Below are positions 23,564 through 37,176 of a DNA stretch of 64,000 nt, piece by piece. Made by a program: the position numbers and the translations under genes. A model generated the notes under the pieces. That model made no database searches. It saw only the letters and a list, made by a program, of their open reading frames with translations, and had not been told where the DNA came from. Every line of letters starts with the position of its first letter. Position 1 is the first letter of the stretch. Origin of the DNA: Pseudomonas azotoformans (lineage in GTDB: Bacteria > Pseudomonadota > Gammaproteobacteria > Pseudomonadales > Pseudomonadaceae); the NCBI RefSeq assembly GCF_001579805.1, contig NZ_CP014546.1, forward strand, positions 2,356,001 through 2,420,000, in the 5' to 3' direction.

Positions 23564-24350
23564 GGGCGCGCCAATCGGTGTGTTCGATTCCGGTATCGGC
23601 GGGTTGACCGTGCTGGACGAAATCCAGCAACTGCTGCCCCACGAATCACTGCTGTATGTGGCCGATTGTGGGCACATCCCCTACGGTGAGAAAAGCCCGG
23701 CATTTATCCTTGAGCGTTCGCGGCGGGTGGCGGCGTTTTTCCGGGAGCAGGGCGCCAAGGCGTTCGTGATTGCCTGTAATACCGCCACGGTCGCCGCCGT
23801 TGCCGACTTGCGCCTGGATTTTCCCGATTGGCCGTTGGTAGGCATGGAGCCCGCCGTCAAGCCCGCAGCTGCCGCTACCCGCAGTGGCGTCGTCGGCGTG
23901 CTTGCCACCACCGGCACGCTGCAAAGTGCCAAGTTCGCCGCCTTGCTCGACCGCTTCGCCACCGATGTGAAGGTCGTGACCCAGCCGTGCCCGGGCTTGG
24001 TCGAGCTGATTGAAAGCGGTGACCTGAACAGCCCAGCCCTGCGCCAGATGTTGCAGGGTTACATCGAACCGCTGCTCAGCGCCGGCTGCGACACCATCAT
24101 CCTCGGCTGCACCCACTACCCCTTCCTTAAGCCACTCCTGGCGCAGATGCTGCCCCCCAGCATCACCCTCATCGATACCGGCGCCGCCGTAGCCCGCCAG
24201 CTCAAGCGTCTGCTGGACGAGCGCGACCTGCTGGCCGACGGCAACCCTGAACCCGCGCAGTTCTGGACCAGCGGCGATGTGTATCACCTAAGAAATATCC
24301 TACCGACACTATGGAAATATCCGGGCGATGTGCGAAGCTTCGCTTCGTGA
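23556..24350 (+). CDS. murI: Glutamate racemase
   Basis: A 264-residue racemase supplying D-glutamate for peptidoglycan. Both catalytic cysteines are visible, in ACNTATVAA and [10 protein letters not shown]. The N-terminal [13 protein letters not shown] is the family signature. The ATG at 23556 (GGGAAG upstream) is chosen; a GTG at 23523 would lengthen it by 11 residues into moeB. Last gene of its operon. Confidence 0.96.
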
Positions 24351-24462
24351 AAAATTCGTGAAATACCGGCGTTATAAGCTGGAACTTCTGACTACACGCC
24401 AGCTTCTATAGCGAGATAGCCTGTACAAAACCATATAACTTCGTTTGGAAAGGATGTTTCTT

Positions 24463-24981
24463 ATGAAGCGCTTGTTCTGTTTGGCCGCGATTGCGGCCGC
24501 TGTAGTGGGGCACTCTGTTTCGGCGCAGGCCGCTGGCCTGGAGTTCGGTGTGGGGAGCACCAGCGATTCGACCATGACCTATCGGCTGGGGCTGACATCG
24601 GACTGGGACAAAAGCTGGTGGCAGAGCGATACCGGTCGACTGACCGGCTACTGGAGCGGCGCCTACACCTATTGGGACGGTGACAAGCGCGCCAGCGTCA
24701 GCAGCCTGTCGTTCTCGCCGGTGTTTGTGTATGAGTTTGCCGGGGAGAGGGTCAAACCGTACATCGAAGCGGGGATTGGCGTGGCGGTGTTCTCGCGCAC
24801 CAAAGTGGAAGACAACAACATCGGCCAGGCTTTCCAGTTCGAAGACCGCTTGGGTTTCGGCCTGCGCTTTGCGGGCGGACATGAAGTGGGCATTCGTGCC
24901 ACGCATTATTCCAACGCGGGCATCAGCAGCAACAACGATGGGGTAGAAAGTTACTCGGTGCACTACACCCTACCGCTGTAA
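24463..24981 (+). CDS. pagL: Lipid A 3-O-deacylase PagL-like
   Basis: A 172-residue outer-membrane beta-barrel enzyme with a Sec signal peptide ending SAQA. The C-terminal catalytic area reads RATHYSNAGIS, with the His and Ser (HxS) of PagL, and a Glu follows in DGVES. PagL removes the 3-linked acyl chain of lipid A, which lowers immune recognition and alters envelope permeability. The ATG at 24463 with AGGA 8 bases upstream is chosen; two upstream in-frame starts (24445, 24454) lack a signal-peptide layout. A single TGTACAAA lies 35 bases upstream. Confidence 0.88.
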   Translation: MKRLFCLAAIAAAVVGHSVSAQAAGLEFGVGSTSDSTMTYRLGLTSDWDKSWWQSDTGRLTGYWSGAYTYWDGDKRASVSSLSFSPVFVYEFAGERVKPYIEAGIGVAVFSRTKVEDNNIGQAFQFEDRLGFGLRFAGGHEVGIRATHYSNAGISSNNDGVESYSVHYTLPL

Positions 24982-24995
24982 CCCTCCAAAAGAAC

Positions 24996-25041
24996 TGTGG
25001 TGAGCGAGCTTGCCTCGCGCGGGGCAAGCCCGCTCACTACA
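24996..25041. repeat. REP-like imperfect palindrome
   Basis: TGTGGTGAGCGAGCTTGCC faces GGCAAGCCCGCTCACTACA across 8 bases, an inverted repeat with two mismatches. It lies between the convergent pagL and ykgJ-like genes. Such elements, with the GTGGNGAGNGAGCTTGC core, are abundant in fluorescent pseudomonads and may act as a weak transcription barrier here. Confidence 0.75.
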
Positions 25042-25053
25042 AAAGCCAAGGGA

Positions 25054-25359
25054 TCAGCGGTAGGCCGTTGCGATCCCTTCGCGCTCGGTCAGGCACTCCG
25101 GCGCCCCCATCTCGAACTCCCGGCAGATCAGCGGCCGTCGCTCGTAGATCGTGCACATCATCGTGTCCCGATCCAGCGCCGCGCACCAGCCGTCGTCCAG
25201 ACGCAACATCACTTCGCCGCCCCAGTCATCGGTATCGATATAGCGTTCCGGCACACCGGTGTCGGTGATCAGCATGACTTCCAGCTGGCAGCAGCAGGCC
25301 GCGCACGTCGAGCAGGTGACGGCGGGTTCGGTGATTTGGGTGTGGGGGATGTTGGACAT
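25054..25359 (-). CDS. YkgJ-family cysteine-cluster protein
   Basis: A 101-residue protein with eight cysteines in the YkgJ (zinc- or iron-chelating) arrangement: CSTCAACCC near residue 20, then single Cys in WCAAL, MCTIYERRPLICREF and PECL. Function is unknown in the family; metal or Fe-S binding is likely. The ATG at 25359 is chosen because the 43-residue extension upstream lies in repeat-like sequence. It follows the DUF2878 gene after 52 bases, so it may be the last gene of the light-associated operon. Confidence 0.8.
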   Translation of the reverse strand: MSNIPHTQITEPAVTCSTCAACCCQLEVMLITDTGVPERYIDTDDWGGEVMLRLDDGWCAALDRDTMMCTIYERRPLICREFEMGAPECLTEREGIATAYR

Positions 25360-25411
25360 GGCGGCAGCTTCAAGCTTTGAGCGGCAAGCTGCAAGTAAAA
25401 GCCGACCGACT

Positions 25412-25897
25412 TCAGTTTTTTGTGGCAGCGTTTGCGAGCAGGATAAAGAGCAAAGCCCACAGCAGTGCCAATGCGACCAGGCTTGCACCCAAGGAATAAC
25501 CGAAGTTCACCCCGGCAAGTTGACTACCGGCGTAGTAAGACATCGGGCCGCCCACGCTGCCCAGTAAAGCGGCACGCCACCAAGGCTGAGTGCTCCAGGC
25601 CAGGCAATGACGCAGTGTGGTCGCCAATAACGCCCAGAGCATTATCAACCACAGCGGAATCAACGGCCCAGGCTCGCTGAACTGGAAAAACCCCACGGTG
25701 CGTAACAACGTATCTATCAACGTGCCCAATAAGGTCACGCCCAGGATCAACCTGCCGTCCTCAGCCCACGAACTTATCCACAGCAGGTGAATCGCCAGCG
25801 CAGCCAGCCCAACGAGAAGCCACAAACTGTCGCCACCCAGCACACACGCAAACCAACCGCACTGAAACAGCACGGCGTTGGCCAGCGTCTTAAGCAC
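25412..25897 (-). CDS. DUF2878 membrane protein
   Basis: A 161-residue protein made of about five or six hydrophobic segments (for example LWLLVGLAALAIHLLWI; LIPLWLIMLWALLATTL; ASLVALALLWALLFILLA), of the DUF2878 family. Start is GTG at 25897, overlapping the end of the cfa-like gene by 8 bases; the longer open frame upstream is only the cfa shadow. It recurs next to DUF1365 and cfa-like genes, so a role in membrane-lipid modification is inferred. Confidence 0.85.
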   Translation of the reverse strand: MLKTLANAVLFQCGWFACVLGGDSLWLLVGLAALAIHLLWISSWAEDGRLILGVTLLGTLIDTLLRTVGFFQFSEPGPLIPLWLIMLWALLATTLRHCLAWSTQPWWRAALLGSVGGPMSYYAGSQLAGVNFGYSLGASLVALALLWALLFILLANAATKN

Positions 25898-27161
25898 TGA
25901 AGCGCCCGAGCAGCGGCGGGTTGATCGCGGACGGCTTGGCCAGCAGCAATTGCGCGGTGCCGATGGTGCGCTCCATAAAGCCACCTTCGCAGTAGCACAG
26001 GTAGAACTCCCACAGCCGCAGGAAGTATTCGTCGTAGCCCAGTTCTGCAAGGCGGCCGTGTGCGCGGCGAAAGTTCTCATGCCACAGGCGCAAGGTTCGC
26101 GCGTAGTGCAGGCCGAAATCTTCCATGTGCAGCAGGTTCATGTCGGTGTCGCGGCTGACGATCTGCAGCATCTTTTGCACGCAAGGCAGAGCGCCGCCGG
26201 GGAAAATGTAGCGCTGGATAAAGTCGACGTTGGTTTTCGCCTGTTCGTAGCGTTGGTCACGAATGGTGATGGCTTGCAGCAGCATCAGGCCGTCGCTCTT
26301 GAGCAGGTGCGCGCACTGTTTGAAGTAGGTCGGCAGAAAGCGATGGCCCACCGCCTCGATCATCTCGATGGACACCAGTTTGTCGTACTGGCCAGTAAGG
26401 TCGCGGTAATCCTGCAACAGCAGCGTGACCTGGTCCTGCAAGCCCAGGGCTGCGATGCGTTTTTCGGTGTAGGCGAACTGCTCCTTGGACAAGGTCGTGG
26501 TGGTGACCTTGCAGTCATAATGCTGCGCGGCATACAGCGCCATGCTGCCCCAGCCGGTGCCGATCTCCAGCAGGTGGTCGCTCGGTTTGAGCGCCAGCTT
26601 CTGGCAGATGCGCTCCAGCTTGTTCAGTTGCGCCTGCTCCAAAGTGTCGTCGGCGGTCAGGAATTGCGCCGCCGAGTACATCATGGTCGGGTCGAGGAAT
26701 TCTTCGAACAGGTCATTGCCCAGGTCGTAGTGGGCGGCGATATTTTTCTGCGAGCCCTTGCGTGTATTGCGATTGAGCCAGTGCAGGCCCTGGGTGAACG
26801 GACGGGCCAGGCGAGCGAGGCCGCCTTCCATTGCGTCGAGCACATCGAGGTTGCTGACCATCACGCGAACCACTGCTGTGAGGTCCGGGCTGCTCCAGTA
26901 ACCGTGGATAAATGCCTCACCGGCGCCGATAGAACCGTTGGCTGCCACCAGGCCCCACACGGCCGAATCAAGGATCTGGATTTCGCCCAGCAGGTGCGCT
27001 TCGCGTGCGCCGAAGACTTGCCGCTCGCCGTCCTCGATCACCACCAACTGGCCATGGCGCAATTGGCTGAGTTGACGCAGCACGGCCTTGCGCAGCAGCG
27101 CGGCGGTCATGCCGTTGACGTTCAGGCGATGGGTCTTGACCGATAAGCTAGGGGATTTCAT
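25890..27161 (-). CDS. Cyclopropane-fatty-acyl-phospholipid synthase family methyltransferase
   Basis: A 423-residue Cfa-family enzyme that transfers a methyl or methylene group from SAM to an unsaturated acyl chain in membrane phospholipid. The SAM loop is LLEIGTGWGSMALYAA, followed by the Cfa motifs EMIEAVGHR and RYIFPGGALPC; C-terminal LWEFYLCYCEGGF completes it. Start at 27161 overlaps the DUF1365 gene by 14 bases. This light-cluster paralogue may methylate fatty acids in another way than the housekeeping Cfa, for example on the route to furan fatty acids. Confidence 0.9.
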   Translation of the reverse strand: MKSPSLSVKTHRLNVNGMTAALLRKAVLRQLSQLRHGQLVVIEDGERQVFGAREAHLLGEIQILDSAVWGLVAANGSIGAGEAFIHGYWSSPDLTAVVRVMVSNLDVLDAMEGGLARLARPFTQGLHWLNRNTRKGSQKNIAAHYDLGNDLFEEFLDPTMMYSAAQFLTADDTLEQAQLNKLERICQKLALKPSDHLLEIGTGWGSMALYAAQHYDCKVTTTTLSKEQFAYTEKRIAALGLQDQVTLLLQDYRDLTGQYDKLVSIEMIEAVGHRFLPTYFKQCAHLLKSDGLMLLQAITIRDQRYEQAKTNVDFIQRYIFPGGALPCVQKMLQIVSRDTDMNLLHMEDFGLHYARTLRLWHENFRRAHGRLAELGYDEYFLRLWEFYLCYCEGGFMERTIGTAQLLLAKPSAINPPLLGRFSA

Positions 27162-27957
27162 GGCGGCGATCCTTGGTGTACCCGACTGCAGTGCGAGAGG
27201 CGCCATCGGCGGCCCGGTGGGAAAAAATCGGTGTGCGTTTGAGCAACAGGCGCAGGGCCTGCCAATAGATCGCGAGGCAGGTCTTGGCGGTCATCCAGGG
27301 AAAGCGCCACAGGTAGCGGTGCAGGCTCGCGCGGTTGAGCGTCTCTTTTTGCAGGCTCAAGGTCGCATCGAAGACTTTCAGTTCGCCTTGCCAATCGGCC
27401 ATGTGCACGCCGAGTCTGGCGGCGGGCGGGCTGAAGCTCATGCGGTATTCCAGGTCGCGCGGCAAGAATGGCGAGACATGGAAGGCCTTGGCCACGGCGA
27501 AGTGTTGGTGCTCCTCCGCAGCCAGGGCCTGGGCCGGCAGCACGTAGTGATAACGCTCGCGCCATGGGGTGTTGGTCACTTCACACAGGATCGCGGCCAG
27601 ACGTCCGTCGCTCTCGAAGCAGTAGAAGAAACTCACGGGATTAAAAGCCAGGCCCCAACTGCGGGCCTGGGTCAGTAGGCAGATAACGCCCTGGGGTGTG
27701 CGCCCCAGCGCCTTGCCGACTTCCTGGCGCACCGCATCGCTCAAACTCATGCCGGTGCGCGTCAATTCACGCAGGTAGTCCTGCTGGCGAAAACCGAAGG
27801 GCGCCAGGCGGCTACGTCCGGCCAGGGGCGAAAGGCCAAGCACTTCGTGTTCTTCGCTCAAATCCAGGTACAGCAAGCCGATGCGGTAGCGAAAGGCATG
27901 GGCCTTGGGCGCAAACCGGCGATGGGCAATCCAGCCGCTGTACAGGGCGCTGTTCAC
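27148..27957 (-). CDS. DUF1365 protein
   Basis: A 269-residue soluble protein of the DUF1365 family, with SGWIAHRRFAPKAHAFRYRI at the N-terminus and the conserved FNPVSFFYC and VTNTPWRERYHYVL blocks. Function is unknown, but it is almost always found with a Cfa-like enzyme and an FAD amine oxidase. It starts with GTG at 27957, overlapping the previous stop as GTGA. The upstream extension to 28185 is out of frame with the real neighbour and low-complexity. Confidence 0.9.
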   Translation of the reverse strand: MNSALYSGWIAHRRFAPKAHAFRYRIGLLYLDLSEEHEVLGLSPLAGRSRLAPFGFRQQDYLRELTRTGMSLSDAVRQEVGKALGRTPQGVICLLTQARSWGLAFNPVSFFYCFESDGRLAAILCEVTNTPWRERYHYVLPAQALAAEEHQHFAVAKAFHVSPFLPRDLEYRMSFSPPAARLGVHMADWQGELKVFDATLSLQKETLNRASLHRYLWRFPWMTAKTCLAIYWQALRLLLKRTPIFSHRAADGASRTAVGYTKDRRHEIP

Positions 27958-29201
27958 AGGGTTTCCCCAAAGGCTTGGGCCACGTGCAGCGCGCTGACCA
28001 CGCCGTCTTCGTGGAAGCCGCTGGCCCAATAGGCGCCGCAATAAAAGGTATTGCGTACGCCCGAAATTTCTTCCCGACGCCCTTGAGCGGCCACCGCCGC
28101 CAGACTGTATTGCGGGTGGGCGTAGGTGTAGCGGGCGAGCACCTTCAGCGGGTTGATCATCGGCGTCTGGTTGAGGCTGACGCAAAAGGTGGTGGCGCTG
28201 TCGATGCCTTGCAGGATGTTCATGTCATAGGTCACGGCCGCCTGCTTCTGCGCCGTGCCGCTCAGCCGGTAGTTCCAGCTGGCCCAGGCCAGTTTGCGGT
28301 CGGGCAGCAGACGGGTATCGGTGTGCAGCACCACGTCGTTGTCGGCGTAGGGCAGGGCACCGAGGATGTCTTGTTCGGCCTGGCTCGGGTCGGCCAATAA
28401 CGCCAGGGCTTGGTCGCTGTGACAGGCGAAGACCACGCGATCGAATGCCTCACTACCGGCCAGGCTGTGGATAACCACGCCGTCGTCGCTGCGCTCGACG
28501 TTATGCACAGGGCAATTGAGGCGGATCTGTTCACGAAAGCTGCGGGTCAGCGGTTCGATGTAACGGCTGGAGCCCCCCTCGATCACGCACCATTGCGGGC
28601 GGTTGCTCACTGACAGCAAACCGTGGTTCTTGAAGAAACGCACGAAGAACTGCAAGGGGAAACCCATCATGTCGGCCAGGGACATCGACCAGATCGCCGC
28701 GCCCATCGGTACGATGTAATGGCGGATAAACCGCTCGCCATAACCGTTGGCGTCGAGGTAGTCGCCCAGGGTCATCTCGGCGCTGATGCGCTGTTCCTGC
28801 AGGTCGAGCGGCGCCTCGCGATTGAAGCGCAAGATGTCACGCAGCATGCCCCAGAACCCCGGCGACAAAATATTGCGACGCTGGGCAAACAAGCTGTTGA
28901 GGTTATTGCCGTTGTATTCGAACCGAGTGTTTTCGTCGCACACCGAAAAGCTCATCTCGGTAGGTTTGAACGTCACCCCGATCTGCCCAAGCAGGCGAAT
29001 GAAGTTGGGGTAGGTCCAGTCGTTGAATACGATGAAGCCCGTATCCACCGCATAGCTTTTACCCTCGACAGTCACGTTGACCGTGTGGGTATGCCCGCCG
29101 ATGCGGTCGCCCGCTTCGAACAGCGTGACCTCATGCTGGCGGCTGAGCAGGTAGGCACTGGTCAGCCCCGCGATACCGCTGCCGATGATAGCGATCTTCA
29201 C
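27954..29201 (-). CDS. FAD-dependent amine-oxidase-like protein
   Basis: A 415-residue flavoprotein of the amine oxidase/desaturase superfamily. The Rossmann motif GSGIAGLTSAYLLS is right at the N-terminus, followed by FEAGDRIGGHTHT, and the C-terminal FAD motif is FYCGAYWASGFHEDGVVSA. Members of this group are found with Cfa-like and DUF1365 genes and probably oxidise a modified acyl chain. Starts with GTG at 29201 in a GTGA overlap with the SDR gene. Confidence 0.9.
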   Translation of the reverse strand: MKIAIIGSGIAGLTSAYLLSRQHEVTLFEAGDRIGGHTHTVNVTVEGKSYAVDTGFIVFNDWTYPNFIRLLGQIGVTFKPTEMSFSVCDENTRFEYNGNNLNSLFAQRRNILSPGFWGMLRDILRFNREAPLDLQEQRISAEMTLGDYLDANGYGERFIRHYIVPMGAAIWSMSLADMMGFPLQFFVRFFKNHGLLSVSNRPQWCVIEGGSSRYIEPLTRSFREQIRLNCPVHNVERSDDGVVIHSLAGSEAFDRVVFACHSDQALALLADPSQAEQDILGALPYADNDVVLHTDTRLLPDRKLAWASWNYRLSGTAQKQAAVTYDMNILQGIDSATTFCVSLNQTPMINPLKVLARYTYAHPQYSLAAVAAQGRREEISGVRNTFYCGAYWASGFHEDGVVSALHVAQAFGETL

Positions 29202-29980
29202 AGGTCGTCCTTCTTCGGCGGTGGGCTGCGTAGCATGCGCTTGCCGATGACCAACTGCGCGCGATTCGGCAGTTTCGACAGCGGCCAGAGGGCGGCAATG
29301 AACAGCGCGGGAAAGGCAATCTCCAGAGGACGCTTTTCCAGCTTGTTGAAGATATGCTTCGCAGCCTTGTCCGCCGGCCAACTGAGTGGCATGGGGAAGT
29401 CATTGCGTTCGGTGAGCGGCGTGTCGACAAACCCCGGGCTGATCACTGTAACGTCGATATTTTCCGGCGACAGGCTGATGCGCAAGGATTCGAACAGGTA
29501 GCGCAGGCCGGCCTTCGACGCACCGTAGGCTTCGGCGCGGGGCATCGGCAGGTAGGTCACGGCGCTGGCGACTCCCACCAGATGTGGCGTGTGCCCTGCG
29601 CGCAACAGTGGCAGCGCGGCTTCGATGCAATAACTGCTGGCCAGCAGGTTAGTGCGCACCACGTGCTCGATGATCGATGAATCAAACTGCTGTGCGTCTA
29701 CGTACTCACAGGTGCCTGCATTGAGGATTACGGTGTCCAGCGAACCCCAGACCACGCCAATATGTTCACCGATCTCGCGCACGGTCTGGCTGTTGGTCAG
29801 ATCGCCCGCTACTACCAGCACTTGGCCGGGATAACGTTGCGCGAGCGCTTCCAGAGGCCCTTTGGTTCGGGAACTCAGCGCTACATGGGCGCCGCTGTTG
29901 AGCAACTCCACGGCCAGCGCGGCCCCGATGCCACTGCTGGCGCCGGTCAGCCAATAACGACGGGGCACTGTGCTGCTCAT
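29198..29980 (-). CDS. Short-chain dehydrogenase/reductase
   Basis: A 260-residue SDR. The cofactor motif TGASSGIGAALAVEL is near the N-terminus, NAGT near residue 90, and the catalytic Tyr-Lys appears as AYGASKAGL. A hydrophobic C-terminal segment suggests membrane association. AAGGAG 6 bases before the ATG at 29980 fixes the start, which overlaps the previous gene as ATGA. Substrate unknown; lipid-derived carbonyls are a reasonable guess from the operon. Confidence 0.92.
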   Translation of the reverse strand: MSSTVPRRYWLTGASSGIGAALAVELLNSGAHVALSSRTKGPLEALAQRYPGQVLVVAGDLTNSQTVREIGEHIGVVWGSLDTVILNAGTCEYVDAQQFDSSIIEHVVRTNLLASSYCIEAALPLLRAGHTPHLVGVASAVTYLPMPRAEAYGASKAGLRYLFESLRISLSPENIDVTVISPGFVDTPLTERNDFPMPLSWPADKAAKHIFNKLEKRPLEIAFPALFIAALWPLSKLPNRAQLVIGKRMLRSPPPKKDDL

Positions 29981-30399
29981 CCCATTCTCCTTTTCAGCCA
30001 ACTGATGACGCTGCCCAGTACGGGCAAGTGTTCGTACAGCAGGGCGCCGGCATCGAAGTAATCTCGATGGCGGTACACCTTGTCACGCCACATCAAGTGC
30101 GAGCAGCCTTCCACGCGGATGACCTTGCCGCCCGCCAGGCGCGGGTGGCAGAAACTCATTTTCCAGCGCAGGTAACCTTCGCCTTCGGCCACCTGGTCGA
30201 AGCCGTGGAAGTCGAAGCGCAGTTGGCTGACGTTGCTGTACAGCTCTGCGAAGTAGCGGTGCAGGGCGGGCAGGCCGTGGACTTCGTGCAGCGGGTCGGC
30301 AAAGGCGATGTCCGGGCTGTACAGGTTGTCGAGCAAATGCAGGTTGTGCTTGTCGAGCGTGGCGAACGCCTGGGCGAATCGGCGCAGGAAATCACTCAT
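29977..30399 (-). CDS. NTF2-like (SnoaL-fold) protein
   Basis: A 140-residue protein of the NTF2-like alpha+beta barrel superfamily: LLDNLYSPDIAFADPLHEVHG, then GEGYLRWKMSFCHPRLAGG and RDYFDAGALLYEHLP. It may bind or isomerise a small hydrophobic ligand. The ATG at 30399 overlaps the photolyase stop by 8 bases; an ATG at 30417 is the alternative. It is part of the light-associated operon in other gammaproteobacteria too. Confidence 0.85.
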   Translation of the reverse strand: MSDFLRRFAQAFATLDKHNLHLLDNLYSPDIAFADPLHEVHGLPALHRYFAELYSNVSQLRFDFHGFDQVAEGEGYLRWKMSFCHPRLAGGKVIRVEGCSHLMWRDKVYRHRDYFDAGALLYEHLPVLGSVISWLKRRMG

Positions 30400-31837
30400 G
30401 TTCGCCCCCGACAGCATGGCGCGAAGGTAGGCTGCGGAAGGCGGCCAGGGCGCGTTCGCGGGATTTCTTCAGGTCGACAATCGAACGCGGGTAGTCGGCC
30501 ACGCCGAACAAGCCGCCGACGGCTTCGGGGTTGTGCACTTCTTTTTTATTCAGCGCGGCCAATTCCGGCAGCCAGTGCTTGATGAAAATGCCCTCGCTGT
30601 CGAATTTCTCCGACTGACTCAACGGGCTGAATATCCGGAAGTACGGCGCCGAATCAGTGCCGGTGGACGAGCTCCACTGCCAGCCGCCGTTGTTGGCAGC
30701 TAGGTCGCCATCGATCAAGTGGCGCATGAAGAAACGCTCGCCTTCGCGCCAGTCGATCAGTAGGTTCTTGGTCAGGAACATCGCCACCACCATGCGCAGG
30801 CGGTTGTGCATCCAGCCGGTTTCCAGCAGTTGGCGCATGGCGGCGTCGATGATCGGCAAGCCGGTACGCGCTTCCTGCCAGGCGGCCAGGTCCTTGGGCG
30901 CGTTGCGCCAGGCCACGGCTTCGGTCTCGGGGCGGAACGCGCGATGGCGTGAGACCCGTGGGTAACCCACCAGGATATGTTTGTAAAACTCTCGCCAGAG
31001 CAGTTCGTTGATCCAGGTGATGGCGCCCATGTCGCCACTTTCGAACTCGCCGCCGTTGGTTTGCAGCGCGGCATGCAGGCACTGGCGCGGCGAAACCACG
31101 CCCGCCGCGAGGTAGGCAGAGAGCTGGCTGGTGCCGGGCTTGGCGGGGAAGTCGCGCTCGTCCTTGTAGTAGCTGATTTGCTGGTCGGCGAAGGCGTCGA
31201 GGCGACGCCGGGCTTCGTCTTCACCGGCAGGCCAGAGGGCGCGCAGTGCTTCGCTGGGTGGTTCGAAACCATCGACCGTGTTCGGCACGGGATCGCTTTT
31301 GAGCTTGATCGGTGCCTGGGCTTTTGGTGCTGCGACCATGCGCGGCAGAGCGCTGTGCAGGCGGGTGTAGCAAACCTTGCGGAACTGGCTGAACACCTGG
31401 AAATACGTGCCCGTCTTGGTCAACACGCTGCCGGGTTGGAAGAACAGTTGATCAAGGTAGCTGTGGAACGTCACGCCATCGGCTTCCAAGGCCTTGGACA
31501 CCGCAGCGTCCCGACGACTTTCGTGGATGCCGTATTCCTCGTTGACGTGGACCGACTCAACCGACAGTTCACGGCACAGTTTGCTCAATACGTCGGGCGC
31601 CTTATCCCAGGTGGCCGCAGTGCGAATCAGCAGGGGGATGTTCCGCGCGCCCAGCGTCTTGCTCAGGTCTTGCAGGTTACGTAGCCAAAAGTCGACTTTG
31701 CACGGCGCATCGTCGTGGGCGAGCCATTGCTGCGGCGTGATCAGGTACACGGCGGCAATCGGTCCTCGCTGGCTCGCGGCGGCCAGGGCGGTGTTGTCGT
31801 GTAGGCGCAGGTCGGTGCGCAGCCAGATCAAATGCAT
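30392..31837 (-). CDS. phrB: Deoxyribodipyrimidine photolyase
   Basis: A 481-residue class I CPD photolyase that repairs cyclobutane pyrimidine dimers with blue light. The antenna domain begins IWLRTDLRLHDNTAL. The FAD domain carries WMHNRLRMVVAMF, DGDLAANNGGWQW and TGTDSAPYFRIFSP, all diagnostic. Its ATG (31837) directly abuts the stop of the LitR-like regulator, so the regulator and the repair enzyme are cotranslated from one message. Confidence 0.97.
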   Translation of the reverse strand: MHLIWLRTDLRLHDNTALAAASQRGPIAAVYLITPQQWLAHDDAPCKVDFWLRNLQDLSKTLGARNIPLLIRTAATWDKAPDVLSKLCRELSVESVHVNEEYGIHESRRDAAVSKALEADGVTFHSYLDQLFFQPGSVLTKTGTYFQVFSQFRKVCYTRLHSALPRMVAAPKAQAPIKLKSDPVPNTVDGFEPPSEALRALWPAGEDEARRRLDAFADQQISYYKDERDFPAKPGTSQLSAYLAAGVVSPRQCLHAALQTNGGEFESGDMGAITWINELLWREFYKHILVGYPRVSRHRAFRPETEAVAWRNAPKDLAAWQEARTGLPIIDAAMRQLLETGWMHNRLRMVVAMFLTKNLLIDWREGERFFMRHLIDGDLAANNGGWQWSSSTGTDSAPYFRIFSPLSQSEKFDSEGIFIKHWLPELAALNKKEVHNPEAVGGLFGVADYPRSIVDLKKSRERALAAFRSLPSRHAVGGEHE

Positions 31838-32767
31838 TTAAACGAGTCCACGCTGGATCAATAGCTGGTGGGCCGACAACAGCTCTTCGGCGACGAACAA
31901 ATCAGGGATGTCCTGGGTTAATACGGTCAACTCGGCCTGGTGGATGCATACCGTTGGTCCGACCATCAATTTTGGGCAACTGACGCCACTCAAAAGTTTT
32001 GCGAAAACCGACAGGTGGAGCGCCTTGCTCGAATACAGCAGCACGGCGCGCGGTTGCAGGTGCTCCACTGCCAGCGCCAGTTCGCCGGCAGGCAGCGGCC
32101 AGTCGAACACTTCCACCGGGCAATCGGCGCTGCTGGCGAGCCAGGCGCTGAGCCACAGGTGCGGCTCCAAGGGCAGGTCGGATTGATTCACCAGCAGCAG
32201 CGGCGCGCCATGCAGCTGGCGATTGTTGTGATAGATGCGCGCACCAAACTTGCTACGCAGCCAGGACAGGAAAAACACCCGCTCCATCTGTGCGCCGAAC
32301 TGGCCTTGCCAGCGTTGTTCCAACTCCTGCAGCAATGGCAGCAGCAGTTGCTCGCACAGCGTGCGCGGCGGGTATAGCGCCATGGCTTGGTTGAAGGCGT
32401 CATCCACCCGGCGCTCGGCCAATTCGCTGATGGCCTGCACCAGGGTCTGGCGCAAGGTGTGCCATTCGTTTTCCACGGCATCGGGAACGCTGAGGGCTGA
32501 GTCGATCAGGCCTTTGACCTGGCTCACCGGCACGCCGCGATTGAGCCAGGTGAGGATGGTGTGGATACGTTGCACATGTTCGGCGCTGAACAACCGATGG
32601 CCCTTGGGCGTGCGCTGGGGCACGATCAGGCCATAGCGGCGTTCCCAGGCGCGCAGGGTCACGGCGTTGACGCCGGTCTGGCGCGCCACCTCGCGGATCG
32701 GCAGCCAGCCGTCTTCGAGGGCTTGGGCGATGTCTTCGCCGGGTTCGTCTTGCAGGGCAGCTTTCAT
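31838..32767 (-). CDS. LitR/CarH-like MerR-family light-responsive regulator
   Basis: A 309-residue regulator. An N-terminal MerR helix-turn-helix (WLPIREVARQTGVNAVTLRAWERRYGLI within 21-48) is followed by a C-terminal domain shaped like the B12-binding domain of CarH and LitR. Key cobalamin residues are altered: the Trp-x8-Glu at 153/162 is followed by Arg instead of His, and the ExHxxG motif is E201-P-H203-L-W-L206, with Gly lost. So AdoCbl light sensing is doubtful, as in class II LitR proteins, which work with a LOV photoreceptor in P. putida (recalled from the literature). It is 3 bases after the DUF523 gene. Confidence 0.88.
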   Translation of the reverse strand: MKAALQDEPGEDIAQALEDGWLPIREVARQTGVNAVTLRAWERRYGLIVPQRTPKGHRLFSAEHVQRIHTILTWLNRGVPVSQVKGLIDSALSVPDAVENEWHTLRQTLVQAISELAERRVDDAFNQAMALYPPRTLCEQLLLPLLQELEQRWQGQFGAQMERVFFLSWLRSKFGARIYHNNRQLHGAPLLLVNQSDLPLEPHLWLSAWLASSADCPVEVFDWPLPAGELALAVEHLQPRAVLLYSSKALHLSVFAKLLSGVSCPKLMVGPTVCIHQAELTVLTQDIPDLFVAEELLSAHQLLIQRGLV

Positions 32768-32770
32768 GGG

Positions 32771-33730
32771 CTAGATCGCATTTCGCAGGCTGAGGTTTTC
32801 CGGGTGCGGTTGCAGGTAGGCCTGCTGCGCGATGTAGCAGTCCGGGTGTTGGCGAAAGTGGTGCTTGAGCAGGGTCAGTGGCACCACCAGCGGCACGATG
32901 CCTTGGCGGTACTGGCCGATGACGGTCTGCATTTCCTGCTTGTCGTCGGCACTGATGACTTGTTTGAGGTAACCGCTGATGTGTTGCAGCACATTGGTGT
33001 GGGTGCCGCGGGTGGCGCATTGGCTCAGGCCTGTCATCAGGTCGCTGAAGTAACAGGCGGCCAATTCATCGAGGTGGGTCTCTTTGGTCATGCTGCCCAG
33101 CAGGTGGCCGAGGCTTTTGTAGTGCGCCGGGCTGTGGGCCATCAACAGGTATTTGTAGCGTGAATGGAAGGCCAGTAGGCGGTGGCGGGTCAGCCCTTCA
33201 GCCAACAGCTGTTGCCAATCGGCGTAGACGAAAACGCGGGTCAGGAAGTTTTCCCGCAGCACCGGGTCATTCAATCGACCGTCTTCTTCCACCGGCAGAT
33301 TGGGGTGACGCGCGCAAAAGGCTTGGGCGTAGATGCCGCGCCCACCACCGTCGACTGGGGTGCCGTTGTCGCGGTAGACCTTGACCCGCTCCAGGCCGCA
33401 CGAGGGTGACTTTTGCATGAAAATGTAACCGCACAGGTCGGTGTGTTCTGACGCCATCTGCTGGCCGTAATCGTCCAGCGGCTGGGTGACGTTCAGTTCG
33501 CGGTGCACCGTGCCGACAGCTTGCGGGTGGGCCGGGTCACCCACCAGGCGGATCGGTTCGCGGGGAATGCCCAGGCCGATGGCGACCTCGGGGCACAGCG
33601 GCACGAAGTCGAAATAGTCGGCAAGGGTCTGGCTGCACAGCAGGGATTGTTTATGGCCGCCGTTGAAGCGCACGTTCTCGCCCAGGAGGCAGGCGCTGAT
33701 GGCGATCTTTGGTTTGGTGGGGCTGGACAT
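32771..33730 (-). CDS. DUF523-DUF1722 fusion protein (TudS-like plus YbgA)
   Basis: A 319-residue two-domain protein. The N-terminal DUF523 domain (about 1-150) has the three conserved cysteines in ISACLLGENVR, LCPEVAIG and KSPSCGLERVK. DUF523 includes TudS, a [4Fe-4S] thiouracil desulfidase. The C-terminal DUF1722 (about 190-305) is the domain of E. coli YbgA, whose gene also neighbours phrB. AGAGG lies 7 bases before the ATG. It is the first gene behind the TGTACA promoter and leads the litR-phrB operon. Confidence 0.9.
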   Translation of the reverse strand: MSSPTKPKIAISACLLGENVRFNGGHKQSLLCSQTLADYFDFVPLCPEVAIGLGIPREPIRLVGDPAHPQAVGTVHRELNVTQPLDDYGQQMASEHTDLCGYIFMQKSPSCGLERVKVYRDNGTPVDGGGRGIYAQAFCARHPNLPVEEDGRLNDPVLRENFLTRVFVYADWQQLLAEGLTRHRLLAFHSRYKYLLMAHSPAHYKSLGHLLGSMTKETHLDELAACYFSDLMTGLSQCATRGTHTNVLQHISGYLKQVISADDKQEMQTVIGQYRQGIVPLVVPLTLLKHHFRQHPDCYIAQQAYLQPHPENLSLRNAI

Positions 33731-33752
33731 AAACGAACCTCTGCAAGATTCC

Positions 33753-33827
33753 TGTACAAGGCTTAAATCTTGTACAACTAAATCCCATCATAGATTCGAT
33801 GCTGTACAAGTCAAATTTTTTGTACAA
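33753..33827 (-). promoter_or_regulatory. LitR operon promoter with four TGTACA operators
   Basis: TGTACA occurs at 33753, 33771, 33803 and 33821. Each pair is 18 bases start to start (TGTACA-N12-TGTACA), and all four continue as TGTACAA. On the - strand, TTGACT (33814-33809), 16 bases, then TATGAT (33792-33787) make a good sigma-70 promoter for the DUF523 gene. One operator pair overlaps the -35 region and spacer; the other lies just downstream of -10. This is a repressor layout, presumably for the LitR-like protein encoded second in the operon. Confidence 0.85.
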
Positions 33828-33843
33828 GTTTTTCGCAGGGCAA

Positions 33844-35072
<1,229 letters not shown>

Positions 35073-35091
35073 CTACGCCGACACCAATAGC

Positions 35092-35115
35092 TGTACAATA
35101 TTGTTTTTTGGTATA
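35092..35115 (-). promoter_or_regulatory. Probable LitR operator pair upstream of the renalase-like gene
   Basis: TGTACA at 35092-35097 and the degenerate GGTATA at 35110-35115 are again 18 bases apart. A further partial copy, GGTACA, lies at 35065. On the - strand TTGTAC within this element could serve as a -35 hexamer with TAGTCT 17 bases on. Weaker than the litR operator set. Confidence 0.5.
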
Positions 35116-35239
35116 AGTTTTGGCTTACCTGTTCTTACGGCGTGACCTATTGTTAAAGCAGAGGCTTAATCCAACGTTACGCCCGCTGCTTATAAAATAG
35201 ACCAGTGCGGGGCGGCGAACGTTACATGAGGAAGATCCC

Positions 35240-36139
35240 ATGCACATTTTGCTGACCGGCGGTACTGGCCTGATCGGCCGCCAACTCTGCCAACACTGGC
35301 TTGCGCAGGGGCATCGGCTGACGGTGTGGAGTCGTCAGCCGGAACAGGTTGCCAAGCGATGCGGCGCTCAAGTCGCAGGCGTCGAACACCTGCAACAGGT
35401 GATCGGCCCGGTGGATGCGGTCATTAACCTGGCCGGCGCGCCCATTGCTGATCGCCCCTGGACCCACAAGCGCAAGGCGTTCTTGTGGAGCAGCCGCATC
35501 AGTCTGACTGAAAACTTGCTGGCATGGCTTGAAGGTCTGGAGCAAAAACCAGCGGTGTTGATTTCCGGTTCAGCGGTTGGCTGGTACGGCGACGGCGGCG
35601 AGCGGGAATTGACCGAAGCCAGCGGCCCGGTGCAGGACGATTTCCCCAGCCAGTTGTGTATCGCCTGGGAAGAAACCGCCCAGCGCGCCGAAGCCTTGGG
35701 CATTCGTGTCGTGTTGGTGCGGACCGGCCTGGTGCTGTCGGCCGAGGGCGGCTTTTTGTCGCGGCTGTTGCTGCCCTTCAAACTGGCGCTGGGCGGGCCT
35801 ATCGGCGATGGTCGGCAGTGGATGCCGTGGGTGCATATCCAGGATCAAATCGCCCTGATTGATTTTCTTCTGCACAAGCCGGATGCCCGTGGTCCTTATA
35901 ATGCCTGCGCGCCACACCCGGTGCGCAATCGCGAATTTGCGAAAACCCTGGGCCAGGTGCTGCACCGTCCGGCGTTCATGCCGATGCCGGCCTTTGCATT
36001 GAAGGTGGGCCTGGGCGAGTTGTCTGGCCTGTTGCTGGGTGGGCAGAAGGCGGTGCCCGAACGCTTGCTGGCCGCCGGTTTCACTTTCCAGTTCACTGAG
36101 TTGCGCGCGGCCTTGGACGACTTGTCCAGCCGCCTCTAG
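35240..36139 (+). CDS. TIGR01777 family NAD-dependent epimerase (YfcH-like)
   Basis: A 299-residue extended SDR. The NAD motif is [16 protein letters not shown], then [13 protein letters not shown], and the active-site region [13 protein letters not shown], where the Tyr is offset as in this family. The C-terminus has the DUF1731 block ([29 protein letters not shown]). Physiological substrate unknown. Fourteen bases before hemH; the pair is conserved in Pseudomonas. Confidence 0.93.
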
Positions 36140-36153
36140 AGATAGGATGTTGC

Positions 36154-37176
36154 ATGACGGATCACGCGTTGTTACTGGTCAACCTGGGCTCGCCAAAGTC
36201 CACCTCGGTGGCCGATGTGCGCAGTTACCTCAATCAGTTCCTGATGGACCCTTATGTGATCGACCTGCCGTGGCCGGTGCGGCGCTTGCTGGTGTCGCTG
36301 ATCCTGATCAAGCGCCCCGAGCAGTCGGCCCACGCCTACGCGTCCATCTGGTGGGATGAGGGCTCGCCGTTGGTGGTACTCAGTCGTCGTTTGCAGCAGC
36401 GGATGACTTCGCAGTGGACCCAAGGCCCGGTGGAGTTGGCGATGCGCTATGGCGAGCCGTCCATTGAAACTGTGCTGACACGTCTCGCCGCCCAGGGCAT
36501 TCGCAAGGTTACCCTGGCGCCGCTTTACCCGCAGTTCGCTGACAGCACCGTGACCACGGTGGTGGAAGAAGCACGGCGTGTGGTGCGAGAGAAAAAACTC
36601 GACCTGCAATTCGCCACCCTGCAACCGTTCTACGATCAACCCGAATACCTCGACGCCCTGGTGGCCAGTGCCAAGCCGCATTTGCAGCAGGACTACGATC
36701 ATCTGCTGTTCAGCTTCCACGGCCTGCCGGAACGCCATCTGCAAAAACTCAACCCTGGGCATACCTTCGATGGCGCCACCGATTGCTGCGTGAACGCGTC
36801 CCCCGAAGTGCGCGCCACCTGCTATCGCGGGCAGTGCTTCAGCGTCGCGCGGGACTTTGCCGCGCGCATGGGTCTGCCGGAGGATAAATGGTCAGTGGCC
36901 TTTCAATCGCGCCTGGGCCGGGCCAAATGGATCGAACCCTACACCGAAGCTCGCCTGGAAACCCTGGCCCAGCAAGGTGTGAAAAAGCTGCTGGTGATGT
37001 GCCCTGCGTTCGTTGCTGATTGCATCGAAACGCTGGAGGAAATCGGCGATCGCGGGTTGGAGCAGTTCCGCGAGGCCGGGGGGGAGGAATTGGTGCTGGT
37101 GCCGTGTCTGAATGATGACCCGCAGTGGGCGAAGGCGCTCAATACCTTATGTGAAAGAGCGCCGGGCTCCCTATAG
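36154..37176 (+). CDS. hemH: Ferrochelatase
   Basis: A 340-residue enzyme inserting iron into protoporphyrin IX. Conserved features: [21 protein letters not shown] at the start, the catalytic His in [26 protein letters not shown], and the C-terminal Glu-rich [19 protein letters not shown]. Its end overlaps the convergent TonB receptor gene by 6 bases. Confidence 0.97.

What the first reader, a model, noticed from the sequence alone, without database searches (positions are those of the whole stretch)
25054..33827. Ten-gene light/photo-oxidation operon led by its own LitR-like repressor
Ten - strand genes follow one another from 33730 to 25054. The first nine are within a few bases or overlap: DUF523-DUF1722, LitR-like, photolyase, NTF2-like, SDR, FAD amine-oxidase-like, DUF1365, Cfa-like, DUF2878. 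A YkgJ-like gene comes after 52 bases. Photolyase ties the set to light. Cfa-like, FAD oxidase, SDR and DUF1365 form a plausible acyl-chain modification pathway. Related sets are known to respond to light or singlet oxygen in other proteobacteria. The products of NTF2-like, DUF1365, DUF2878 and YkgJ are not characterised. I infer a photoprotective membrane-lipid pathway.
Basis: partly seen in the sequence, partly recalled or inferred. Interest (0 to 1): 0.85.

Follow-up and report, generated by a model that had tools for sequence, protein, structure and literature searches.

The report
Pseudomonas blue-light protection operon
This is a Pseudomonas gene set, already known from close relatives to switch on in blue light, that very probably erases a light-sensitive tRNA mark, repairs DNA and makes a furan-type membrane fat; the new parts are two more genes that seem to belong to the same light switch.

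Summary
In detail: ten minus-strand ORFs, nine coupled (gaps -14 to +3), then YkgJ after 52 bases. Genes and promoter match the nine-gene blue-light operon PME6650-PME6610 of Pseudomonas mendocina: TTGACT-N16-TATGAT with two TGTACA-N12-TGTACA operators. Corrections: gene 1 is RudS, a tRNA 4-thiouridine eraser; LitR is second. LitR is class II without B12 motifs, so the sensor is probably the short LOV protein encoded near a second LitR. The Cfa-like enzyme lacks two cyclopropane-synthase residues and is UfaM-like; FAD and DUF1365 genes are UfaD- and UfaO-like, so the lipid is probably a furan fatty acid. YkgJ is probably outside the unit. Beyond the papers I could read: (1) renalase-DUF2389 just upstream has its own LitR-type site, at most 2 mismatches in 55 of 59 genus genomes; (2) a DUF3833 gene 0.72 Mb away has one of four exact operators in the genome and occurs in 32 of 59 genomes, all 32 with UfaO; (3) NTF2, SDR, DUF2878 and DUF3833 are recurrent partners of the furan trio. 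Light response, binding and lipid product were not testable here.

The parts
33803..33826 (.). LitR operator Site 1, TGTACA-N12-TGTACA, overlapping the -35 box
   Evidence: Exact match; same arrangement as Site 1 of P6650 in PMC9758184
33787..33814 (-). sigma-70-type promoter TTGACT-N16-TATGAT
   Evidence: Only promoter-like site found in 24000-36500, though shuffles give 2.8 on average; hexamers and spacing identical to the mapped P6650 promoter
33753..33776 (.). LitR operator Site 2, TGTACA-N12-TGTACA, between promoter and start codon
   Evidence: Exact match; at least one site with at most 1 mismatch in this leader in 53 of 56 genus loci, two in 37
32771..33730 (-). rudS: TudS (DUF523)-DUF1722 fusion, tRNA 4-thiouridine desulfidase
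   Evidence: PF04463 + PF08349; Cys14/46/111 correspond to Cys17/49/114 of P. putida RudS
31838..32767 (-). litR1: class II LitR (PplR1/PmlR1 type) MerR-family repressor
   Evidence: MerR + B12-binding_2 only; matches CarH only to residue 173; no DxHxxG or W..EH motif
30392..31837 (-). phrB: photolyase, probably class I CPD type
   Evidence: PRK10674 above cut-off; E. coli photolyase 1dnp E 3.6e-130
29977..30399 (-). NTF2/SnoaL-like protein of the lipid block, probable enzyme
29198..29980 (-). short-chain dehydrogenase of the lipid block
   Evidence: PF00106; TGASSGIG and YGASK motifs
27954..29201 (-). ufaD-like FAD desaturase
   Evidence: Amino_oxidase/NAD_binding_8, GSGIAG; beside ufaO in 35 genus loci
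27148..27957 (-). ufaO-like DUF1365 protein, furan ring-forming oxygenase
   Evidence: PF07103 E 7.9e-75; DUF1365 is the UfaO domain (PMC7380195)
25890..27161 (-). ufaM-like SAM methyltransferase acting on acyl chains
   Evidence: CMAS; cyclopropane-synthase residues C139 and H266 replaced by A and Q
25412..25897 (-). DUF2878 hydrophobic (membrane) protein of the lipid block
   Evidence: PF11086; hydrophobic segments
25054..25359 (-). YkgJ-like CxxCxxCC protein; neighbour, probably not in the operon
   Evidence: PF03692; 52-base gap; present in 10 genus loci without the lipid trio, behind PhrB (3), SDR (5) or DUF2878 (2)
   Evidence: Full-length match to the solved chain named Renalase, 4zcc, E 4e-184
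33844..34059 (-). DUF2389 Trp-rich small protein, 4-base overlap with renalase
   Evidence: PF09493
35092..35115 (.). LitR-type operator of the renalase promoter, TATACC-N12-TGTACA on the - strand
   Evidence: Two mismatches to TGTACA-N12-TGTACA, which alone is within chance; at most 2 mismatches in 55 of 59 genus genomes, 53 of them at -70 to -78

Best explanation
It is the Pseudomonas class II LitR (PplR1/PmlR1-type) blue-light operon in its long form. In the dark, LitR proteins sit on two TGTACA-N12-TGTACA operators covering the -35 box and the leader and block a sigma-70 promoter. Blue light activates a short LOV flavoprotein, encoded elsewhere near a second LitR, which pulls the repressor(s) off (shown in P. 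mendocina for PmlR2; inferred here). One nine-gene mRNA is then made. RudS removes 4-thiouridine, the near-UV crosslinking residue, from tRNA (activity shown for the P. putida orthologue); PhrB repairs CPD lesions; UfaM methylates a cis-vaccenyl chain in phospholipid, UfaD desaturates it and UfaO adds O2 to give a methylated furan fatty acid (shown in Rhodobacter and Rhodopseudomonas; inferred here), which would scavenge photo-oxidants in the membrane. NTF2-like, SDR, DUF2878 and an unlinked DUF3833 lipoprotein are recurrent partners of that trio; my guess is that they handle oxidised acyl products. LitR also controls the renalase-DUF2389 promoter just upstream and the distant DUF3833 gene (inferred from operators). 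YkgJ is a neighbour.
For: Same named genes and order, promoter hexamers and spacing, and operators as the light-induced P6650 unit (PMC9758184). Second LitR with a short LOV two genes away (7yx0 E 8e-93; Cys in QDCRFLQ), the arrangement described. RudS cysteines kept. UfaM signature: Q at H266 in 38 of 38 sequences. At the locus, RudS-LitR-PhrB in 54 and UfaD-UfaO-UfaM in 35 of 59 genus genomes. NTF2-SDR-UfaD-UfaO-UfaM with DUF2878 and DUF3833 nearby in four other families of the class (loci picked because both DUFs lay on one contig). In putida-type clusters LitR2-LOV, operator, module and DUF3833 are often side by side. DUF3833 in 32 of 59 genus genomes, all 32 with UfaO, P 4e-7 uncorrected for kinship.
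Against: No expression, binding or lipid data for this strain. PmlR2, not PmlR1, was the repressor studied in vitro. I saw no furan fatty acid reported from Pseudomonas in what I read (search listings; passages). R. sphaeroides mutants in RSP1087-1089, three other genes of the ufa operon, made normal furan fatty acid, so a catalytic role for NTF2/SDR/DUF2878 is not given. The renalase unit is not among the transcription units listed for P. mendocina in the section read. UfaO occurs without DUF3833 in 12 of 44 genus genomes.
Confidence: 0.85

Rival explanations
1. The Cfa-like gene makes cyclopropane fatty acids and the operon is an ordinary membrane-hardening stress operon.
For: CMAS family match; best three PDB hits are cyclopropane synthases.
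Against: C139 is A or S in 37 of 38 and H266 is Q in 38 of 38 non-redundant UfaM-like sequences, while the three solved synthases aligned keep C and H there (the role of these residues is recalled). The gene sits beside DUF1365 (UfaO) and FAD (UfaD) genes.
Confidence: 0.06
2. LitR here is itself the photosensor through adenosyl-B12, as CarH/LitR class I.
For: HTH plus four-helix B12-binding_2 domain align to CarH.
Against: No B12-binding Rossmann hit, alignment ends at residue 173, motifs DxHxxG and W..EH absent in both LitRs (motifs recalled). PMC9758184 states that B12 is not needed for PplR-dependent light induction.
Confidence: 0.05
3. The unit is induced mainly by singlet oxygen through an RpoE-ChrR pair, as related sets in Rhodobacter and Vibrio.
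For: Related genes belong to ChrR-linked responses: furan lipid rises in R. sphaeroides chrR mutants (PMC7380195); V. cholerae VC1122 rises in blue light, in a genome-wide response that needs ChrR and a MerR-like protein (PMC5241685).
Against: The one promoter-like site found is a sigma-70 type embedded between LitR boxes, matching a mapped start in P. mendocina. ChrR itself was not searched for here.
Confidence: 0.08
4. The operator in front of renalase only stops dark read-through into the light operon; renalase has no role in the light response.
For: In the three genomes where the operon is not next to renalase (L169, L184, L210) the site is gone although a LitR is present elsewhere; no terminator-like site was found between DUF2389 and rudS.
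Against: These three may be one evolutionary event. Either way LitR would control renalase. In P. putida PP_0738-PP_0742 were up together in a co-culture (PMC11014904), though its authors reason that light per cell was lower there; PP_0741 is rudS, so PP_0742 should be the renalase gene by gene order (8 genomes with FAD2-RudS-LitR-PhrB-SDR).
Confidence: 0.35
5. All ten genes including YkgJ are one transcript.
For: Same strand, 52-base gap, hairpin that folds no better than shuffles, no promoter-like site in the gap. YkgJ lies downstream in 42 of 59 genomes.
Against: The DUF2878-YkgJ gap varies from 32 to 406 bases while inner gaps are near-fixed overlaps; YkgJ is kept in 10 genomes without the trio; the P. 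mendocina unit has nine genes and ends at the place of DUF2878.
Confidence: 0.25

Closest known systems
Pseudomonas mendocina PME6650-PME6610 light-inducible operon (PmlR1/PmlR2, PmSB-LOV; PMC9758184)
   Same: Nine genes, named ones in the same places, same -35/-10 and spacing, two TGTACA-N12-TGTACA sites, second LitR near a short LOV
   Different: Here renalase and DUF3833 leaders also carry sites; the fol and cryB units of P. mendocina did not come up in the operator scan and were not looked for by sequence; no expression data here
P. putida KT2440 PplR1 regulon (PP_0738-PP_0742 and a separate ufaM set; seen only through citing papers)
   Same: RudS-LitR-PhrB core with renalase before and SDR behind by gene order, same operator consensus
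   Different: In putida-type loci the furan module sits in a second cluster, often with LitR2, LOV and DUF3833; here it is inside the photolyase operon and DUF3833 is alone
Furan fatty acid genes ufaM, ufaD, ufaO of Rhodobacter sphaeroides and Rhodopseudomonas palustris (PMC7380195)
   Same: SAM methylase, FAD desaturase, DUF1365 oxygenase
   Different: Product raised in chrR mutants there; NTF2, DUF2878 and DUF3833 partners are not described in the sections read
RudS (PMC11417400)
   Same: TudS-DUF1722 fusion with three cysteines, gene in a LitR-photolyase operon
   Different: Activity not tested; this is an orthologue
Bacterial renalase of Pseudomonas (4zcc; Hoag 2015, title seen in a reference list only, link to 4zcc recalled)
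   Same: Full-length match, 328 of 328 residues aligned
   Different: No light-dependent control of renalase turned up

Membership tests
P. mendocina-type nine-gene light operon | Nine genes RudS-LitR-PhrB-NTF2-SDR-FAD-DUF1365-UfaM-DUF2878 with overlapping or abutting starts | tested here: met
   against the description (the paper calls four of the nine hypothetical; these positions are inferred from order)
P. mendocina-type nine-gene light operon | TTGACT-N16-TATGAT promoter with two TGTACA-N12-TGTACA sites | tested here: met
P. mendocina-type nine-gene light operon | Induced by blue light through LitR and LOV | not testable with these tools
   Needs RNA and protein work; only the parts list was checked
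Class II LitR | MerR HTH plus B12-binding_2, no B12-binding Rossmann domain or its motif | tested here: met
   LitR1. LitR2 showed only the HTH at E<=0.001 and is placed by similarity and its LOV neighbour
Class I LitR/CarH (B12 photosensor) | DxHxxG cobalamin ligand motif and W..EH motif (recalled) | tested here: not met
   Absent in LitR1 and LitR2
RudS tRNA 4-thiouridine desulfidase | TudS fused to DUF1722 with three cluster cysteines | tested here: met
Cyclopropane fatty acid synthase | Bicarbonate-site residues C139 and H266, E. coli numbering (roles recalled) | tested here: not met
   A and Q in the window; C in 1 of 38 and H in 0 of 38 UfaM-like sequences
UfaM/UfaD/UfaO furan fatty acid pathway | CMAS methylase, FAD desaturase and DUF1365 oxygenase encoded together | tested here: met
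UfaM/UfaD/UfaO furan fatty acid pathway | Sequence orthology to the proven Rhodobacter/Rhodopseudomonas proteins | not tested
   Those sequences were not retrieved; none of the 80 loci kept (of 574 relatives) is titled R. sphaeroides or R. palustris
UfaM/UfaD/UfaO furan fatty acid pathway | Methylated and furan acyl chains in phospholipid | not testable with these tools
   Needs GC-MS
Bacterial renalase | Full-length match to the solved Pseudomonas renalase | tested here: met
   4zcc, residues 1-328, E 4e-184; activity not testable
Nitrobindin/lipocalin-like barrels (considered for UfaO) | Clear structural match | tested here: inconclusive
   [not shown]

The most novel reading that the evidence does not exclude
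The LitR light switch of Pseudomonas governs a wider photoprotection programme than the published operon: besides tRNA 4-thiouridine erasure, DNA repair and furan lipid synthesis it controls renalase, an NAD(P)H-isomer repair enzyme whose purpose in bacteria is, to my knowledge, unexplained, and a DUF3833 lipoprotein. This would make light damage to nicotinamide cofactors a testable reason for bacterial renalase. It would also make NTF2, SDR, DUF2878 and DUF3833 the missing downstream half of bacterial furan-lipid metabolism, for example the handling of the ene-diones formed when furan chains absorb singlet oxygen.
Probability: 0.5. Interest if true: 0.6.

Novelty: new member of a known kind. 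Interest (0 to 1): 0.42.

Why it matters
The operon itself confirms in another species a known light response, with better gene names than the usual annotation carries (DUF1365 = UfaO, DUF523-DUF1722 = RudS, Cfa = UfaM). What could matter is the extension: a conserved LitR-type site in front of renalase gives this enzyme a possible physiological setting, and the strict co-occurrence of DUF3833 with UfaO in the genus sample, together with the recurrent module, names four further proteins to test in furan fatty acid metabolism, whose reason to exist in bacteria is open.

Tried and rejected
Rejected: cyclopropane synthase reading (residues); B12 photosensing by this LitR; an Rfam RNA element in 24000-36500 (none at gathering score); a hairpin terminator before YkgJ (z +1.08, 174 of 200 shuffles fold at least as well). 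The terminator scan as a whole is near chance (14 found, 12.0 in shuffles).

Of the 51 distinct places that I listed, I judged by local G+C and overlapping frames that the two rudS sites, the renalase site and the DUF3833 site lie in AT-rich leaders; the exact place 1151899 lies in an OprD-like reading frame and is probably chance; 62732 lies in a low-GC methyltransferase-like frame. No gene caller was available, so weaker true sites may be missed. The LitR2-LOV region has no match with fewer than two mismatches; it holds 16 matches with two or three mismatches where shuffles give 2.9 (0 of 200 reach 16), and the window 20 with up to three where shuffles give 11.3 (3 of 100 reach 20). I have no explanation for this surplus and did not use it.

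DUF3833: the site is not universal; 10 of the 30 loci examined (of 32 genomes with the gene) have at most one mismatch within 250 bases.

UfaO structure: no trustworthy match. The protein search with UfaO listed 120 of 7644 relatives, named DUF1365, hypothetical or uncharacterised where named. 'PhrR' in PMC5343134 turned out to be a different, TyrR-family regulator (passages); a MerR-family 'PhrR' regulon in RegPrecise is mentioned in PMC12971978 (passage) and may already list some of these genes in Vibrio. Sumi et al. 2020 (P. putida) is not held, and supplementary tables could not be read, so I cannot say whether renalase or DUF3833 is among the published light-induced genes. 'Not found in print' for renalase and light rests only.

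Full report
OBSERVATION. The ten ORFs are present on the - strand at the stated places. Pfam assigns RudS (2-thiour_desulf + DUF1722), MerR + B12-binding_2, photolyase, SnoaL_2, adh_short, Amino_oxidase, DUF1365, CMAS, DUF2878 and CxxCxxCC. Gaps are 3, 0, -8, -4, -4, -4, -14, -8 and then 52 bases. Gene 1 is RudS, so the operon is not led by LitR.

PROMOTER. On the - strand the leader holds TGTACA-N12-TGTACA (33803-33826), TTGACT-N16-TATGAT (33814-33787) and TGTACA-N12-TGTACA (33753-33776). The published P6650 promoter of P. mendocina has the same hexamers, the same N16, and two TGTACA-N12-TGTACA sites, one over the -35 box and one between start site and start codon (PMC9758184, section read). 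The hexamer match by itself is not above chance. The genome of the window (6.86 Mb) has four exact places for the operator consensus, two of them here, and none for the reversed control; composition predicts about 0.14.

WHAT IS KNOWN. PMC9758184 (sections read) describes nine genes PME6650-PME6610, taken as one polycistron, with pmlR1, phrB, SDR, FAD oxidoreductase and ufaM (Table 1, light over dark: pmlR1 5.7-10.1x, phrB 26.7-33.2x, ufaM 25.0-33.2x), and shows in vitro that the second class II LitR, PmlR2, loses DNA binding with lit short LOV (a gel shift in the same paper showed a complex still on DNA; its authors favour the other assay). PMC11417400 (abstract and passages) shows that TudS-DUF1722 proteins erase tRNA 4-thiouridine and lower UVA growth delay in E. 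coli, and notes that rudS sits with LitR and PhrB. PMC7380195 (abstract, two sections, passages) shows that UfaM, UfaD and UfaO (DUF1365) make methylated furan fatty acids on phospholipid.

SENSOR. This genome has two LitRs at E<=1e-20. The second (C1:342444) lies two genes from a short LOV protein that matches 7yx0 with E 8e-93. Neither LitR has the recalled cobalamin motifs, and LitR1 aligns with CarH only to residue 173. I therefore infer LOV-driven release; which LitR acts at this promoter is open.

CONSERVATION IN THE GENUS. Renalase (FAD2) is in 59 of 59 genomes of the genus sample, the window's own included, so I took 58 further loci around it and mapped them with the window. Tallies: RudS, LitR and PhrB in order 54 of 59; UfaD-UfaO-UfaM at the locus 35 of 59; UfaO anywhere 44 of 59; YkgJ downstream 42 of 59, of which 10 lack the trio (behind SDR 5, PhrB 3, DUF2878 2). 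The lipid block thus behaves as a cassette between PhrB and YkgJ. Of the 80 named loci kept, 52 have RudS-LitR-PhrB ahead of UfaD-UfaO-UfaM; the UfaO nearest to the window's is that of P. simiae (97%).

SECOND CLUSTER TYPE. Thirteen named loci (L294-L299, L301-L306, L308) carry the module without RudS or PhrB, with 52-57% identical UfaO: by the listing, 12 of 13 have an operator with at most one mismatch just upstream, 10 of 13 a convergent DUF3833, 7 of 13 a LitR2-LOV pair upstream; some contigs end within the stretch. In five of the 30 DUF3833 loci examined in the genus such cluster genes lie beside DUF3833 (L101, L108, L117, L120, L123), in L120 and L123 as truncated or broken pieces although a full operon exists at the renalase locus of the same genomes. 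The lone DUF3833 of the window genome (C1:3109148-3109669, 719 kb from the operon) is best read as the survivor of such a cluster. Its leader has an exact operator.

CO-OCCURRENCE. In 114 genomes of the class: DUF1365 32, DUF3833 18, DUF2878 18 (17 over the family cut-off); DUF3833 with DUF1365 in 16 of 18 (P 5e-9), DUF2878 with DUF1365 in 12 of 18 (P 2e-4) (uncorrected for relatedness). In 13 of the 16 the DUF3833 and DUF1365 genes lie within about 10 kb on one contig; the three exceptions are the window genome, G106 and G085. Four loci, chosen because DUF2878 and DUF3833 lay on one contig, were read in full: all four have NTF2-SDR-UfaD-UfaO-UfaM in order with DUF2878 behind and DUF3833 behind, ahead or within 11 kb (in L066 DUF2878 was found by the Pfam profile, not by tblastn). 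In the genus, DUF3833 is in 32 of 59 and UfaO in 44 of 59; all 32 have both, 12 have UfaO alone.

RENALASE. The gene upstream (34056-35042) belongs to the bacterial renalase family (4zcc, E 4e-184) and overlaps DUF2389 by 4 bases. Its leader holds TATACC-N12-TGTACA. One such two-mismatch site is within chance for a 64 kb window; the evidence is conservation: a site with at most two mismatches lies within 200 bases in 55 of 59 genomes, 53 at -70 to -78. The four without are L169, L184, L210, where the operon is not next to renalase though a LitR exists elsewhere, and L183, where the operon leader has no site either. Control windows drawn from the same loci reach two mismatches in 42 of 1180, a rate raised by the real sites among them. 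In P. putida, PP_0738-PP_0742 were up together in a co-culture (PMC11014904 passage), where the authors think light per cell was lower, so this points to joint control and not to light induction; PP_0741 is RudS, so PP_0742 is by order renalase. Against: P. mendocina's listed light-induced units do not name it. Whether the site serves renalase or shields the operon from read-through is undecided.

OTHER LITERATURE. V. cholerae VC1122, a putative cfa gene, is up in blue light, in a genome-wide response that needs ChrR and a MerR-like regulator (PMC5241685 passages); DUF2878 VC1123 is listed in a RegPrecise MerR-type PhrR regulon (PMC12971978 passage); in Aeromonas salmonicida NTF2, SDR, FAD, DUF1365, cfa and DUF2878 genes form one predicted operon lowered by riboflavin (PMC10012899 passages). 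P. cichorii phr is called light-inducible (PMC13274461 passages).

SHOWN AND INFERRED. Shown here: gene content, promoter and operators, residue signatures, conservation and co-occurrence. Shown elsewhere for orthologues: light induction, LitR-LOV release, RudS activity, furan pathway chemistry. Inferred: that this strain does all of this, the roles of NTF2, SDR, DUF2878, DUF3833 and renalase in it, and the protective benefit.

Noticed in passing
   Followed up: yes
L007:933-1524 (genome C1:3109148-3109736): DUF3833 lipoprotein gene behind one of four exact LitR operators in the genome, about 0.72 Mb from the operon.
   Followed up: yes
L120, L123: Truncated or broken pieces of a second UfaD/UfaO/UfaM/DUF2878 cluster beside DUF3833 in genomes that also hold the full operon: decay of a duplicate.
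   Followed up: partly
L307, L311: Halopseudomonas loci have renalase, RudS, PhrB and the lipid block in order but no LitR hit between RudS and PhrB.
   Followed up: no
L312, L313, L314, L316-L322, L324: Outside Pseudomonas the UfaD-UfaO-UfaM core often has a second, 27-31% identical CMAS gene nearby, possibly FufM or a true cyclopropane synthase.
   Followed up: no
L171 (G128): RudS-PhrB-SDR without LitR1 between them, yet operators remain in front of RudS; the only LitR found is a LitR2-like copy elsewhere, suggesting that LitR2 can serve this promoter alone.
   Followed up: partly
L362 and window: More two- and three-mismatch matches to the LitR consensus than dinucleotide shuffles give (16 against 2.9; 20 against 11.3); unexplained.
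   Followed up: no
window 24445-24981 (+): Convergent ORF downstream of YkgJ that looks like a PagL-type lipid A deacylase (recalled resemblance, not tested).
   Followed up: no
[not shown]
   Followed up: partly
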